A stretch of DNA of 64,000 nucleotides from Roseibium aggregatum IAM 12614 (lineage in GTDB: Bacteria > Pseudomonadota > Alphaproteobacteria > Rhizobiales > Stappiaceae): positions 62,001 through 126,000 of the forward strand of contig NZ_AAUW01000011.1 in the NCBI RefSeq assembly GCF_000168975.1. Reading direction: 5' to 3'. Made by a program: the position numbers and the translations under genes. Positions 54,737-63,070 of this stretch are shown here, piece after piece; position 1 is the stretch's first letter, and every line of letters begins with the position of its first letter. The notes beneath the pieces were generated by a model. The model did no database searches. It was given only the letters and a program-made list of their open reading frames with translations, and was not told the origin of the DNA.

Positions 54737-55336
54737 TCAGGCGGCTAGTTCCAATGTCTGAGCCAGTGCGGCGTCCCGGTTATCAGGGTCAATCATCAAC
54801 TGATCGGCGGCAATAATCGTCACATCGGAAATTCCGATGAAGCCCAGAATATGCTTCAGGTAAGTCCCGGCGAAGTCGATCTCTGATCCTACCTTGGTGC
54901 CACCGGAGGCAATGATGATATAGGCCTTTTTTCCCTGAAGCAGACCAACCGCTCCATTCTCCGTATACTGGAACGTCTCTCTTGCCCGCGCGATCATGTC
55001 GATCCACGCTTTTAGCGCCGCCGGAACGGAGAAGTTGTAAACAGGGGTGCCAATCACGATGGTATCTGCTGCCTTTAATTCCCCAACAAGCGTGTCAGAC
55101 AAAGCAAGCGCCTCTTTCTGTTCTGCGCTCCGTGCAGCAGGATCTGTAACAGTCGCTCCGATCCACTCTTCACTGAGGAAAGGCAGTCCCTGGGAAACAT
55201 CACGAGCAATGACTTCAACATCTGGTGATTTTGCCATTAAACGTGTCACAAAGGTCTGCCCAAGGTCCCGCGTCACCGAACCGGTGGCACGAGCAGAGGC
55301 ATTAATGTGCAGGATTGTTTTCAACGGCGCGGACAT
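54737..55336 (-). CDS. azoR: FMN-dependent NADH-azoreductase
   Basis: Flavodoxin-like quinone/azo reductase of 199 residues, the family's usual length. The N-terminal FMN loop is INASARATGSVTRDLG. IGTPVYNFSVPAALKAWIDMIARARETFQYTENGAVGLLQGKKAYIIIASGG contains the flavin ring loop (core PVYNFSVPAALKAWID). FAGTYLKHILGFIGISDV completes the fold. The ATG at 55336 has GGAGATCAAA upstream. It probably serves in quinone or electrophile stress. Confidence 0.93.
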   Translation of the reverse strand: MSAPLKTILHINASARATGSVTRDLGQTFVTRLMAKSPDVEVIARDVSQGLPFLSEEWIGATVTDPAARSAEQKEALALSDTLVGELKAADTIVIGTPVYNFSVPAALKAWIDMIARARETFQYTENGAVGLLQGKKAYIIIASGGTKVGSEIDFAGTYLKHILGFIGISDVTIIAADQLMIDPDNRDAALAQTLELAA

Positions 55337-55468
55337 TTTGATCTCCAATGTTTCAGAAAGAGAAACGGTTTCTGTTCGTGATCTGGAGATAGTCTTCGAT
55401 TTTTTTAATAACTAGCCTTGAATTGGTGAACAGTGCGTCAAGCCATCAAACGATGCCTTATGGGCATT

Positions 55469-55723
55469 TCAAGCCCCCCATCTAATTCCTGACAGGAGTT
55501 TGTAAAGTCCAGCCAGCGCCAGCGCCCCCACAATGGTGCTAACCAGTTTGCCCTTGACGCTGGACGTCCCTTTGCGCAAATCGCGCAGAAAATGCATATC
55601 CTTTTGAGCCTCAAACGGATGTTCAATATCGACGCCGAGCGCACGAAGCACTTCCTGGGCAGCCTCCCGACCGCCTTCTTTTCCGCCTTCTCTGGCAAAT
55701 TCCCGAAACTGATCTTCGTTCAT
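55469..55723 (-). CDS. Small phage membrane protein, DUF6127-like
   Basis: The 84-residue protein has a charged N-terminus (EFAREGGKEGGREAAQEVL), a middle HFLRDLRKGTSSVKGKLV and one C-terminal hydrophobic helix (about 62-80). Proteins of this shape sit beside holin genes in many alphaproteobacterial prophages, so a role in lysis is possible. The DUF name is from memory. The ATG has AGGGACGGG upstream. It is the last gene of the prophage module in this window. Confidence 0.62.
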   Translation of the reverse strand: MNEDQFREFAREGGKEGGREAAQEVLRALGVDIEHPFEAQKDMHFLRDLRKGTSSVKGKLVSTIVGALALAGLYKLLSGIRWGA

Positions 55724-55910
55724 TGCCCGTCCCTTGCGTAGCCATTTTTAATTTCGTCGTACCATCGGCTGCATCGCGTAAGCCCGCCGCAAAGAAGTCA
55801 CCCAGAAAGGGCAACGCCACCTCCGCGCCAGAGAGCAGCGCAGCAAGCAGCATAAGGCGCACGCTCCAAGCCCTTTGCAGGACCGCGCGCCAGTCTGAAA
55901 CCAGTTTCAT
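55623..55910 (-). CDS. Holin-like phage protein, possibly truncated
   Basis: The first ~40 residues (MKLVSDWRAVLQRAWSVRLM then LLAALLSGAEVALPFLGDFF) match small phage holin-like proteins (DUF7940-like) that normally have a second transmembrane helix. Here the frame instead runs into charged sequence and overlaps the next gene by 101 bases in another frame. In a different frame the reading ends exactly at the next ATG (ATGA). A frameshift or truncation near 55780-55800 is likely; the end given is the literal stop. Confidence 0.45.
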   Translation of the reverse strand: MKLVSDWRAVLQRAWSVRLMLLAALLSGAEVALPFLGDFFAAGLRDAADGTTKLKMATQGTGNERRSVSGICQRRRKRRRSGGCPGSASCARRRY

Positions 55911-56259: not shown

Positions 56260-58443
56260 CTATGCTACACGCTGATATATGGCGATTTGACCGGCCGCAC
56301 CGCGACTACGCCACGTACCAGACAGGCCCGTGGACTTGTTGGGGTCAGATGAGTCGGCATAGCCAGTGGATGCGCTGTGCAAGTAGCAGGCTCGTGAAGC
56401 ATTTCTGTTGATCGAGGCGGGCGCCGATGCCCAGATGATGTGTCCAATCGGATAGTTTGTTTCGTTCGCGTTGGACCCGTCATAGACAAGCCCTAGCTTA
56501 TGAAATCCGCCGTCGTTCTCTTCTGCAACGAGAGCGTTGGCGCTGTCGTCCCAGCCTAAGTATCTGTCCGTATTGCTGTTCTTGTCCCTGAAAATAATCC
56601 AGTTGTCGCCGGACCCGGCACGACCAAGATATATATGGTTGTTCGAAAGAAGCTGACCTGTTGCAGTCACGTTCCCCGAGATTGTCCCGCTTACATCGGA
56701 CCGCAAAAGCTGGTTTGGCCCAAGGCCGCCGACCGTGCCGGCGTCGTAGCTGGTTGAACCTTGTGGCCCTTCCGGCCCCGTTGCCCCGACCGGCCCCACA
56801 TCGCCCTTTGCAGCCAGCAAGCCCCAATCATCCGGCGAGATGCTGGGGTTCTGACCGATGTTCACCCGCAACGAGATATAGGACGACCCGTTATAGGTGA
56901 CCGTTTCGTCAGAATTGTACGTTTCGCCAGAAGACCAGAAGCCCCGATAGATCAACCCGGGATCGCCCTGCGGGCCTTGCGGACCCTGCGCACCTGTCGG
57001 ACCTTGCGGGCCGGGATCGCCTTTCGGTCCTTGGATGCCTTCCGGGCCTTGCACACCCTGCGGCCCTTCCGGCCCCTGAATGCCCTGCAATCCCTGCAGG
57101 CCGCGTTCCCCTTTCGCGGCAACAATGTCCCATTCAGCGGCGGCGTCTTCCGGGGTGACACCGGTATGGGCTGCCACGCAGATGAAGTAAGACCCGTCAT
57201 GGCTGACCGTATCTCGCTCAACGTAAGCGGTTGCCACGTTCCACGTTCCACGGTGGTTCAACCCGACAGGACCGGCCGGGCCTCGAATGCCCTGCGGCCC
57301 CTGCAAGCCCTGCGGCCCGCGCCCGAAGTTGACACCAGTCGACCAGGCGCCGACCGCGTTGGAGAGCTTCCAATAAACAATCCCGGCCTCGGTATCGAGA
57401 AAGGACGTGTCTTTGGGTTCAGCGTCATAGGCTGCACGGTCGGCCGTCAGGCCGGTGTAATCCGGATCAAATGACTTGCCAATCGGCCCCTCTGGACCCT
57501 GCGGGCCTTGCGGTCCAGTCGGTCCTTGCGAGCCAGTCGGACCGGATGGCCCTTCAGGACCTCGCGGACCTTCATAGCCGAGCGGGCCGCGTTCCCCTTG
57601 AGGCCCCTGCGGACCTGCAGGGCCTTGCGGACCGGCCGGACCCGTGGGGCCTTGGTTGCCAACCGGGCCTTTCGGTCCTTGAGCACCTGGGAGAGAGGCT
57701 ATTTCAAGAACCTGCTGAAGCGTCGGCAAGTCCTGATTTTCGGCCGCATCAAGCGCGTTGATCATTCGGCGGCCTTTCAGGTCAAAGCCGCCGTTGACCT
57801 CGATCAGCGCCCGGGTGGCGACCGACTGCATGTTGATCGCCGTCCGGTCCATGGCGCGTTCCATGACCGCCGGGTCAATCTCACCGCCCGCCAGGCTGTA
57901 AGGCTGATCGTATTTGCTCACCAGCAAAACCGTCAGCACTTCGCCAGGCTGCAAGGCGGCAGCATCAAACAGCACTGTACCGGTACCGAAGTTGCCCCCG
58001 GTAACACCGCCAAGCATCGCGCCGGTGGCGCTGATACGCCCCGCGCGGCGGCTCGAATGTGCCCGCTCCCGGGCAGTCTTCGCCTCGAAGGTCAGATTGT
58101 CCCGCTTGCCTTCCGCGCCATACCGGATGGCTTCGATGTTTTGAGCCACTTCGAAGGCATTGTCGTCCGCGACGTCGTTCAGCGAACCGGTTTGCGACAG
58201 ACCCCGTTCGGCTCCGGCAGCCCGGTTGAAGCCGAGCGCCCTTTCGTATTTGTCCAGGGTTCGTTTTCGCTCAAAAGAAGCCTGGGTCTGATTGACTGCC
58301 TTCTGGTGGTCGGCCAGTTCTGCACGGCGTTCTTCCGCCTTTGCCTGGGCATCTGCCTGCTGGCGCGCGCCTTGCGCTTGCACGGCGCCGCCGGCCAGCG
58401 ATCCCGCAACGGAGACCGCAGCCAATATTGCTGGATGACACAT
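56260..58443 (-). CDS. Fused internal virion protein and collagen-repeat tail fibre
   Basis: The 727-residue protein appears to join two phage proteins. Residues 1-150 begin [10 protein letters not shown] and are Ala/Gln/Arg-rich helices like T7 gp14-type internal virion proteins. Residues 151-248 resemble the N-terminal virion-attachment domain of T7 gp17 fibres ([19 protein letters not shown]). Gly-X-Y collagen repeats follow at 252-322, 376-395, 447-498 and 548-563. Between them are two ~50-residue modules with conserved W, Y and G (about 397-446 and 498-547) like CBM5/12 carbohydrate-binding modules. Residues 570-727 form the tip. It begins four bases after the gp12-like gene. The fusion is inference from segment similarity. 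Confidence 0.8.
57478..57690 (-). repeat. Longest collagen-type Gly-X-Y block
   Basis: About 23 consecutive G-X-Y triplets rich in GPQ, GPT and GPE are encoded here within the tail-fibre gene, with matching DNA-level short repeats (gcctTGCGG-like). Such tracts form trimeric stems and are prone to recombination. Shorter blocks lie at about 57259-57318, 56950-57105 and 56755-56802. Confidence 0.85.
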
Positions 58444-62032: not shown

Positions 62033-63070
62033 TCAGATATTCACCTTCAGGCAGGCCAGCTTCACGTTCTTGCGGTTGTATTTCCGGTCCCAGTTGGCCG
62101 CGTTGCGCAGTTCGGCCAGGCTCGCGCCCTGGGATTTGGCAAGAGAAGACGCCGTGAAATCCATCCCGGCCGGATGGATCAACTCGAAACGTCGGGTGGT
62201 CAGATAGTCGGCACCGCCGCCGTCGCCAATATCCGGATCACGGGTGATTTCGGTGCCTTCGTTGCCGTAAATCGTCGAGCGGCTGGGCACTTCGTCGATA
62301 TGCATGAAAGCGCCCGGTGCAAACAGGAAGCAGGAGTATTCGTCCGAATTGGCACCGGCCGTCACCGGCATCATTTCCGAATGCACCACCATCATTCCGG
62401 CGTAATAAGGCACCTCGAACGGCGCTTCGGACGGTTTCTTGAACTCGATCTTTTCGTCGTCCAGAAGCGTGCCATAGACGAAGCTGTGCATGGCGATCAC
62501 GCGCAGGTCGTCCAGGTTTTCACCCATGGTCAGCCGGGCCCGGTTGATCGCCTGATAGCTGATGCGGTTGGCAGCCGTCGGCGAACCGACATCGGAATAG
62601 ATGGAATAGATCATGTCGCCGCTGTCATTGGCGACATTGTCGGCGATCACGCCTTCAGCCGTCGCAATGATGCGCTCTTCCTTGCGGCGTCCCCAATAGG
62701 CGCTGATCCGCTCCGCCACCCGGTTCATGGCGCTGTCGCCTCGCCCCGTTGCGGCATAGCTTGCCACCGTCTTGGCACCGTATTTCTTGGCCAGGCGGTG
62801 CTTGTAGGCCTTCATGTCACTGGCGGTGATCTTGCTGACACCGATCTTGTTGTCGCTGTCGTCAATCACCGTCGGCTCGGCATCGTCGAGGTCTTCCCAA
62901 TAGGGCACTTCAATCTGGTTGCCACCGGCCTTGAAGCGCTTGCCGATTTCCGGTGCCGGACCGGCCAGAATGCCGGATTTTTCCAGCATGATCAGCTTGG
63001 CCGGCTTGTTCTCCGCCATGTAGGGGGTAAACACACGCGGGACGACGATGTCTGAAATTTGAGATGTCAT
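62033..63070 (-). CDS. Phage major capsid protein
   Basis: The 345-residue protein resembles HK97-fold coat proteins: TSQISDIVVPRVFTPYMAE, an early FKAGGNQIEVPYW strand, ITASDMKAYKHRLAKKYGAKTVASYAATG, a central helix with RKEERIIATAEGVIADN, and C-terminal EVPSRSTIYGNEGTEITRD and TRRFELIHPAGMDF segments. The ATG has AAGGAAATT upstream. It stands upstream of the tail genes as T7 gene 10 does, and tandem terminators follow. Assignment rests on pattern and position. Confidence 0.82.
   Translation of the reverse strand: MTSQISDIVVPRVFTPYMAENKPAKLIMLEKSGILAGPAPEIGKRFKAGGNQIEVPYWEDLDDAEPTVIDDSDNKIGVSKITASDMKAYKHRLAKKYGAKTVASYAATGRGDSAMNRVAERISAYWGRRKEERIIATAEGVIADNVANDSGDMIYSIYSDVGSPTAANRISYQAINRARLTMGENLDDLRVIAMHSFVYGTLLDDEKIEFKKPSEAPFEVPYYAGMMVVHSEMMPVTAGANSDEYSCFLFAPGAFMHIDEVPSRSTIYGNEGTEITRDPDIGDGGGADYLTTRRFELIHPAGMDFTASSLAKSQGASLAELRNAANWDRKYNRKNVKLACLKVNI

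What the first reader, a model, noticed from the sequence alone, without database searches (positions are those of the whole stretch)
56260..58443. Internal virion protein and tail fibre appear fused in one phage gene
The 727-residue protein starts like a podoviral gp14-type internal virion protein (MC start, Ala/Gln/Arg-rich helices to about residue 150). It then continues with a gp17-type fibre attachment domain ([19 protein letters not shown] near residue 217) and a collagen-repeat fibre. In T7 these are two separate genes separated by genes 15 and 16. Here both large internal proteins are missing and the two ends are joined. This is either a new architecture or a prophage deletion that kept the reading frame.
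Basis: partly seen in the sequence, partly recalled or inferred. Interest (0 to 1): 0.72.

Follow-up and report, generated by a model that had tools for sequence, protein, structure and literature searches.

The report
Prophage deletion fused two virion genes
A short deletion inside an old, decaying phage remnant in a marine Roseibium bacterium joined the front of one virus-particle gene to the back of another; close relatives still have two separate genes, so the fusion is a scar and not a new kind of phage protein.

Summary
The ORF is real. Residues 1-148 are a T7 gp14-type internal virion protein (Pfam T7_gp14, 36.3 bits, cut-off 27). The rest is a collagen-type tail fibre.

Close relatives carry the two halves as separate genes. 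Residues 1-148 are 97-99% identical to gp14-like proteins of 165-166 residues. Residues 148-247 are 99% identical to an intact fibre that begins 59 residues earlier.

The junction is an exact 5-base microhomology (TTACC). Relative to three intact relatives about 1.88 kb is missing: the gp14 tail, one gp15-position gene and the fibre's first 59 codons. Of 30 loci examined, only this genome and an identical database copy have the fusion.

The same element shows two more lesions: a lysis-cassette deletion and an effector-like gene cut by an in-frame stop. gp16 was found in none of the loci of this element type, so this deletion did not remove it.

The context is more interesting than the fusion. 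The element sits at one chromosomal site in many Roseibium genomes, lacks gp16, and carries effector-like proteins ending in a module shared with a phage gp15-position protein. That suggests, without proof, a podovirus-derived toxin-delivery particle.

The parts
58000..58443 (-). gp14-type internal virion protein part of the fused gene (residues 1-148; its last 17-18 residues are lost)
   Evidence: Pfam T7_gp14 36.3 bits, PHROG 418; 97-99% identity to separate 165-166-aa genes in L005-L008
58000..58004 (-). deletion junction: 5-base microhomology TTACC, present at both edges in the intact relatives
   Evidence: edges compared with L005, L007, L008 (both edges) and L011 (fibre edge); BLASTN blocks of L005, L007 and L008 overlap by exactly these 5 bases
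57805..57999 (-). remaining second half of the fibre's gp17-type attachment domain (intact-fibre residues 61 to about 125)
   Evidence: alignment A2 of 12 intact fibres; low-confidence model of the intact domain matches Carin1, T7 gp17 and LME-1 fibre or tail N-termini
56260..57999 (-). tail-fibre part of the fused gene, with collagen repeats (about residues 250-567) and a C-terminal domain
   Evidence: PF01391, PHROG 5073 and others; residues 148-247 99% identical to the fibre of L011
58447..60879 (-). gp12-like tail protein, intact (810 aa)
   Evidence: PHROG 376 tail protein E 3.5e-163; aligned over 810 residues in 28 of 30 loci, 809 in G031, not found in L014
60876..61463 (-). gp11-like tail protein, intact (195 aa)
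   Evidence: PHROG 394 tail protein
62033..63070 (-). major capsid protein (345 aa)
   Evidence: PHROG 247 major head protein E 5.9e-73; 91-96% identity in 14 other genomes with this element type
55623..55910 (-). holin-like ORF: about the first 45 codons are original, then joined to sequence from the end of an o-spanin-like gene
   Evidence: Pfam DUF7940 residues 2-44, PHROG 1356 holin; comparison with L005, L007, L008
55771..55777 (-). second deletion junction: about 1.06 kb absent relative to L005 (endolysin, i-spanin-like gene, most of o-spanin-like gene)
   Evidence: BLASTN blocks 13794 / 14855 in L005; sequences compared; exact junction not resolved; family matches of the lost genes (i-spanin only E 0.0094)
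54737..55348 (-). flanking chromosomal gene (Flavodoxin_2 fold) that sits beside this element in other Roseibium genomes

Best explanation
The gene is a deletion scar in a decaying, chromosomally fixed podovirus-like element of Roseibium. A deletion between two copies of TTACC joined codon 148 of the gp14-like gene to codon 60 of the downstream fibre gene, in frame. It removed the end of gp14, the one gene between them (in the gp15 position) and the first 59 codons of the fibre (shown by comparison with relatives). The protein, if made, should work neither as an ejection protein nor as a fibre: gp14 is stored inside the capsid and ejected, while the fibre must dock outside on the tail, and its docking domain is cut in half (inferred).
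For: Separate genes at 97-99% identity on either side. Exact 5-base microhomology at both edges. About 1.88 kb lost relative to L005, L007 and L008. Fusion in 2 of 30 loci, both the same sequence; in the genus search the only open frame longer than 223 aa among 18 matches in 17 of 45 genomes is this one. The gp15-position protein has no match at E 0.001 in this genome, while a local tblastn with the same query finds it in 19 of 22 loci of this type, the three misses being G000, its copy L004, and G031, whose contig ends just after gp14. Two further lesions in the same element. Sister genomes have lost other blocks at the same site. The lost fibre residues 1-59 are as conserved in 12 intact fibres as the rest (31 of 59 columns invariant, against 52 of the remaining 91; counted), and the domain's model matches solved T7-type fibre attachment domains.
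Against: The fused frame is still fully open over 727 codons. In the gp14 part this genome has only 1 private amino-acid change against 7 private silent ones, so there is no sign of decay since the fusion; it may be very recent, or the product may still be constrained. The 4 genes compared for this genome (capsid, gp11, gp12, gp14) show strong purifying selection against 8 relatives (dN/dS 0.008-0.152; the between-species values rest on high, partly saturated dS). Only one assembly carries the fusion, so a cloning or assembly error cannot be excluded from here.
Confidence: 0.93

Rival explanations
1. A new, functional architecture in which the outer-membrane pore protein and the fibre are one polypeptide.
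For: Frame open and both halves recognisable; few private amino-acid changes in the gp14 part.
Against: Found in no other genome examined; junction is a microhomology scar in the middle of a conserved docking domain; the lysis genes of the same element are deleted; one protein would have to be inside the capsid and outside on the tail.
Confidence: 0.03
2. Assembly or cloning artefact: the chromosome really carries the two separate genes.
For: A single draft assembly of 48 contigs; the IMG/VR copy L004 is identical over the 8,532 bases compared and probably the same assembly.
Against: Junction lies inside a 233-kb contig; the missing protein has no match on another contig; other lesions and sister-genome losses at the same site make a real deletion plausible.
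Confidence: 0.04
3. The N-terminus is an ordinary fibre-anchoring domain unrelated to gp14.
For: None found.
Against: Pfam T7_gp14 above its cut-off and near-identical stand-alone gp14-like genes directly after gp12.
Confidence: 0.005

Closest known systems
T7 gp14 internal virion (ejection) protein family, Pfam PF24072
   Same: Residues 1-154 match above the curated cut-off; the gene follows the gp12-like gene as in T7-type order.
   Different: Last 17-18 residues missing and replaced by a fibre.
T7 gp17-type tail fibre (N-terminal attachment domain, as in PDB 7ey9, 7boz, 8ck1)
   Same: The intact fibre of relatives has this attachment domain, then a collagen-repeat shaft.
   Different: In the window the first 59 residues of that domain are deleted.
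Phage-associated polymorphic toxins (MuF family, PMC12226406; Bxa of Bacteroides, PMC11699363)
   Same: For the surrounding element only: one conserved module shared by proteins with differing other domains, with small partner-like genes in 7 of the 11 loci that have such proteins, in a prophage-like locus.
   Different: The shared module is the C-terminal region of a phage gp15-position protein, not MuF, and lies towards the C-terminus; no toxicity data.

Membership tests
T7 gp14 internal virion protein | Sequence match to the family profile above cut-off | tested here: met
   PF24072 36.3 bits, cut-off 27
T7 gp14 internal virion protein | Complete stand-alone protein followed by gp15 and gp16 genes | tested here: not met
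   fused after residue 148; gp15-position gene and gp16 absent
T7 gp14 internal virion protein | Ejected from the capsid and forms an outer-membrane pore | not testable with these tools
   described for T7 in PMC8954989 (passages read)
T7 gp17-type fibre | Complete N-terminal tail-attachment domain | tested here: not met
   first 59 residues missing relative to 12 intact fibres; intact domain matches T7-type fibre N-termini
T7 gp17-type fibre | Fibrous shaft and C-terminal part | tested here: met
   collagen repeats and PHROG tail-fibre matches
Prophage deletion (decay) product | Near-identical relatives with the unfused arrangement | tested here: met
   L005, L007, L008 show both genes separate; L006 shows the gp14 side, L011 the fibre side at 99%
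Prophage deletion (decay) product | Short direct repeat at both deletion edges | tested here: met
   TTACC
Prophage deletion (decay) product | Other damage in the same element | tested here: met
   lysis-gene deletion; effector-like gene interrupted by an in-frame stop
Conserved new phage architecture | Same fusion in independent genomes | tested here: not met
   2 of 30 loci, both one sequence; the junction pattern gave 4 stretches in viral contigs, of which only the identical copy aligns to the window
Phage-associated polymorphic toxin system (surrounding element) | Conserved delivery module joined to variable domains | tested here: inconclusive
   a shared 150-aa module with differing N-terminal parts is present in 15 proteins from 11 of 30 loci; that the module serves delivery is not shown
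Phage-associated polymorphic toxin system (surrounding element) | Toxic enzymatic domain | tested here: inconclusive
   PIN-like fold, best Z 7.6, rmsd 3.7 over 131 residues, Foldseek nothing below E 0.09; DUF6973 below its cut-off in one of 6 proteins
Phage-associated polymorphic toxin system (surrounding element) | Adjacent immunity gene | tested here: inconclusive
   small ORFs with a DITGWR-type motif in 7 of 30 loci, all among the 11 with such proteins; function untested
MuF polymorphic toxins | MuF N-terminal domain | tested here: not met
   no such Pfam match up to E 0.1 in 6 effector-like proteins

The most novel reading that the evidence does not exclude
The fusion sits in a podovirus-derived element that Roseibium has kept at one chromosomal site and turned into a toxin-delivery particle. 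The element lacks the gp16 tunnel protein, keeps only the front part of the gp15-position protein, and carries separate effector proteins whose C-terminal sides are that protein's C-terminal module, which would load them into the capsid core and eject them into competitor cells. In the window strain the particle is being lost, and the fused gene marks the loss of the gp15-position remnant.
Probability: 0.3. Interest if true: 0.8.

Novelty: new member of a known kind. Interest (0 to 1): 0.3.

Why it matters
As a gene, the fusion matters little: it is one more in-frame deletion in a decaying prophage, and annotation should not list it as a new fibre or internal protein. It did lead to an element that may matter: a podovirus-like gene set at one site in many Roseibium genomes, with strongly constrained capsid and tail genes, no gp16, and effector-like proteins carrying a piece of a phage gp15-position protein. 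If those effectors are packaged and ejected, short-tailed phage particles would join type VI-like devices and MuF phages as carriers of polymorphic toxins.

Tried and rejected
New architecture: rejected because only one genome (plus its identical database copy) has it. Fibre-anchor-only reading of the N-terminus: rejected by the T7_gp14 profile match and stand-alone homologues. Loss of both gp15 and gp16 by this deletion: rejected, since gp16 was found in none of 22 loci of this element type (19 of which run through to a fibre; L006, L026 and G031 do not), while it was found in 6 of 7 loci with a long gp15-position gene, G021 being the miss. Isolated phages with a similar fusion: tblastn of the whole protein against 50,697 phage records gave matches in 48, none covering 80% of the query; the 40 rows listed covered only fibre parts, 8 were not listed. 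Three of four junction-pattern hits (L080-L082) were chance: no alignment to the window. A PDB sequence search with the gp14 alignment found nothing up to E 1. The fibre-domain model has low confidence (mean pLDDT 53.7); its matches are support only. The extensions of the gp15-position proteins of G015 and G013 have no Pfam match that names them; calling them toxin-like is recall. The name 'gp15' is by position: PHROGs gave no family for the 511-aa protein of L007, and only endolysin families for the 868-aa protein of L011. Literature: no title or abstract start that I was shown names this fusion or element (15 of 48 listed; 26: 3 of 3; 35: 1 of 1; 63: 9 of 9; 64: 5 of 5; 72: 12 of 988; 73: 12 of 43). 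This covers open-licence PMC only, and all but three of the listed papers were not opened.

Full report
The observation. The ORF at 56260-58443 (minus strand, 727 codons, ATG) exists as described. Its first 154 residues match the Pfam family T7_gp14 above the curated cut-off (36.3 versus 27 bits), and PHROG 418 'internal virion protein' covers residues 1-148; the remainder matches collagen repeats and tail-fibre families. Its upstream neighbours are in podovirus order: major capsid protein (62033-63070), a gene without a PHROG match, a 195-aa gp11-like tail protein, an 810-aa gp12-like tail protein, then this gene.

Relatives keep two genes. A search of viral contigs with residues 1-247 gave 11 loci. 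In L005-L008 the match covers residues 1-148 at 97-99% identity and that protein then ends normally after 165-166 residues; in L011 the match covers residues 148-247 at 99%, preceded by the fibre's own N-terminus. L005, L007 and L008 carry both genes with a gene of 511 codons (from its likely start) between them; L006 ends inside that gene.

The junction. On the coding strand the fusion reads GGTGTTACC|GGGGGCAAC. Intact gp14-like genes read GGTGTTACCCAGGC and intact fibres read ACTTTACCGG(G/C)GGCAAC, so the two edges share exactly TTACC, window 58000-58004. By my arithmetic from the block ends, 1878-1880 bases are missing relative to L005, L007 and L008: the last 17-18 gp14 codons, the gene in the gp15 position and fibre codons 1-59. 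Frame is kept.

How unusual it is. Across 30 loci the gp14-like frame runs into a fibre only in G000 (this genome) and L004, which are the same sequence; in 27 of the other 28 it stops 160-177 residues after the start, and the distant L014 (30% identity) also stops on its own. L030 and G019 give identical match lengths and identities and may be one genome. In the genus search 17 of 45 genomes have a match (18 matches), with open frames of 161-223 aa except the 728 of this genome. The gp15-position protein has no match at E 0.001 in this genome. That search has no built-in control; a local tblastn with the same query finds the protein in 19 of 22 loci of this element type (27% to 100% identity), and misses it only in G000, L004 and G031, whose contig ends just after gp14.

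What the deletion cut. Twelve intact fibres align over 150 columns with 86% mean column identity; 31 of the 59 lost columns are invariant, against 52 of the other 91 (counted). A model of the intact domain, of low confidence (mean pLDDT 53.7), has eight strands followed by helices; the junction falls after the fifth strand. Its best solved matches are T7-type fibre N-termini: Foldseek first hit 8ck1 (E 1.2e-5), with 7ey9 and 7boz (T7 gp17) in the first ten; VIA-align Z 9.1 (rmsd 2.9, 84 residues), 8.0 (rmsd 3.6, 82) and 7.5 (rmsd 3.6, 81) for these three. So the fused protein has half an attachment domain. In T7, gp14 is stored in the capsid core and is the first protein ejected, forming an outer-membrane pore (PMC8954989, passages read). 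One polypeptide in both places is unlikely; that step is inference.

Other damage in the same element. About 1.06 kb is also missing from the lysis region relative to L005: about the first 45 codons of a holin-like ORF run into the end of an o-spanin-like gene, and the 154-aa lysozyme and an i-spanin-like gene are gone (family matches, the i-spanin only at E 0.0094). Beyond the window an effector-like gene is interrupted by an in-frame stop, giving ORFs of 118 and 611 aa.

Results against decay. The fused frame is open throughout. Private codon changes of this genome in the gp14 part are 7 silent and 1 amino-acid. Pairwise dN/dS of the capsid, gp11, gp12 and gp14 genes between this genome and 8 relatives is 0.008-0.152; for the gp15-position gene it is 0.32 and 0.42 in the two of five comparisons where dS could be computed. 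The element was therefore under selection until recently, and the fusion must be young or its product still constrained. I cannot decide between these by sequence, but the cut docking domain and the lost lysis genes favour the first.

The element. A shared gene set (terminase and head-tail connector and Pfam Head-tail_con; a 305-aa gene in the scaffold position, a label that is recalled; capsid, gp11, gp12, gp14, a short gene in the gp15 position, fibre, lysis genes) occurs, whole or in part, in many Roseibium genomes, with the same chromosomal neighbours downstream (a Flavodoxin_2 gene, DUF2336, LysE, extensin-like and decarboxylase genes; labels). Sixteen genomes have a capsid or gp14 gene of this type. 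In 12 of them (G000, G002, G004, G005, G013, G015, G016, G017, G034, G035, G037, G040) it lies on the same contig and strand as the DUF2336 gene and within about 30 kb; in G024, G031 and G033 the two are on different contigs, and in G027 no close DUF2336 match was found. Of 12 further stretches next to this marker, 10 hold pieces of the element (G007, G018, G023, G026, G039, G042, G004, G020, G041, G021); G036 gave only a weak lysozyme match and G009 none. G004 is in both counts, because it keeps the capsid gene but has no gp14. In G026 and G007, 94-95% identical to this genome in the main shared element blocks, other blocks are missing.

Two kinds of relative. Seven of the 30 loci (G019, G021, G040b, L027, L029, L030, L031) have a gp15-position gene of 837-913 aa, and 6 of these 7 also have a match to the 1401-aa gp16-type protein of L011 (partial in L029 and L031, none in G021). 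L011 lies on the contig of L027; its gp16 matches PHROG 342 'internal virion protein with endolysin domain' (E 1.3e-89) and its gp15-position protein has a Phage_lysozyme domain. Twenty-two loci are of the window's type, with no gp16 match and, in the 19 that show one, a short gp15-position gene or part of it; L014 is a distant outlier. The C-terminal region of about 150 residues of the long gp15-position protein recurs, at E 1.9e-60 to 6.4e-69 by an iterated profile, in 15 separate proteins of 238-861 aa in 11 of the 30 loci, out of 4001 ORFs searched; the only other matches are the 7 long gp15-position proteins themselves. The N-terminal parts of these proteins fall into several types (13 of 15 printed). 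One type gives a confident model (mean pLDDT 85.0) whose VIA-align list holds many PIN-domain and VapC proteins (best Z 7.6, rmsd 3.7, 131 residues), though Foldseek alone gave nothing below E 0.09 and such Z values are common; another weakly matches DUF6973 below its cut-off. Small ORFs with a DITGWR-type motif occur in 7 of the 30 loci, all among the 11 with such proteins. This resembles phage-borne polymorphic toxins such as the MuF family (PMC12226406, abstract and passages read) and Bxa (PMC11699363, outline and abstract read), but with a different module. In 50,697 phage records the C-terminal region of L011's gp15-position protein matches only 2 and the effector module 1, all weakly. 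Toxicity, packaging and ejection are untested.

Conclusion. The fusion is a real sequence and an in-frame microhomology deletion in a decaying element: ordinary in kind. The element around it deserves its own study.

Noticed in passing
L015:15549-17381 (- strand), L051:3159-5411, L051:15282-17537, L055:440-2758, L055:13389-15284, L057:7310-9328, L065:9014-11284 and others: Effector-like proteins in this Roseibium element family share a 150-residue module with the C-terminal region of a phage gp15-position protein, behind differing N-terminal domains, one type of them PIN-like.
   Followed up: partly
L009:10410-13075 and L010:10522-12953: The gp15-position proteins of two relatives (747 and 669 aa) have a long basic C-terminal extension followed directly by a 141-aa gene, resembling a toxin-immunity pair (resemblance recalled).
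   Followed up: partly
L051:1400-3162, L051:13518-15285: Tandem related copies of small genes (157-173 aa, DITGWR motif) stand upstream of the effector-like genes, three in a row at each of the two places.
   Followed up: no
L011:9824-11788 compared with window 56260-58004: The fibre on a 44-kb prophage contig with a long gp15-position gene and gp16 is 99% identical to the window's protein over residues 148-247, while its upstream gp12-gp14 region is only about 75% identical in DNA: suggests recent fibre exchange.
   Followed up: no
L015:10737-11681 (- strand): A 315-aa protein with a Glucosaminidase domain (Pfam E 1.8e-14) lies between the 305-aa gene and the capsid gene of the element, just beyond the window's end.
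   Followed up: no
L117 (G026) and L114 (G007): Two genomes 94-95% identical to this one in the main shared element blocks lack different blocks at the same site; in G026 the stretch from just upstream of the capsid gene to near the end of the element is missing.
   Followed up: partly
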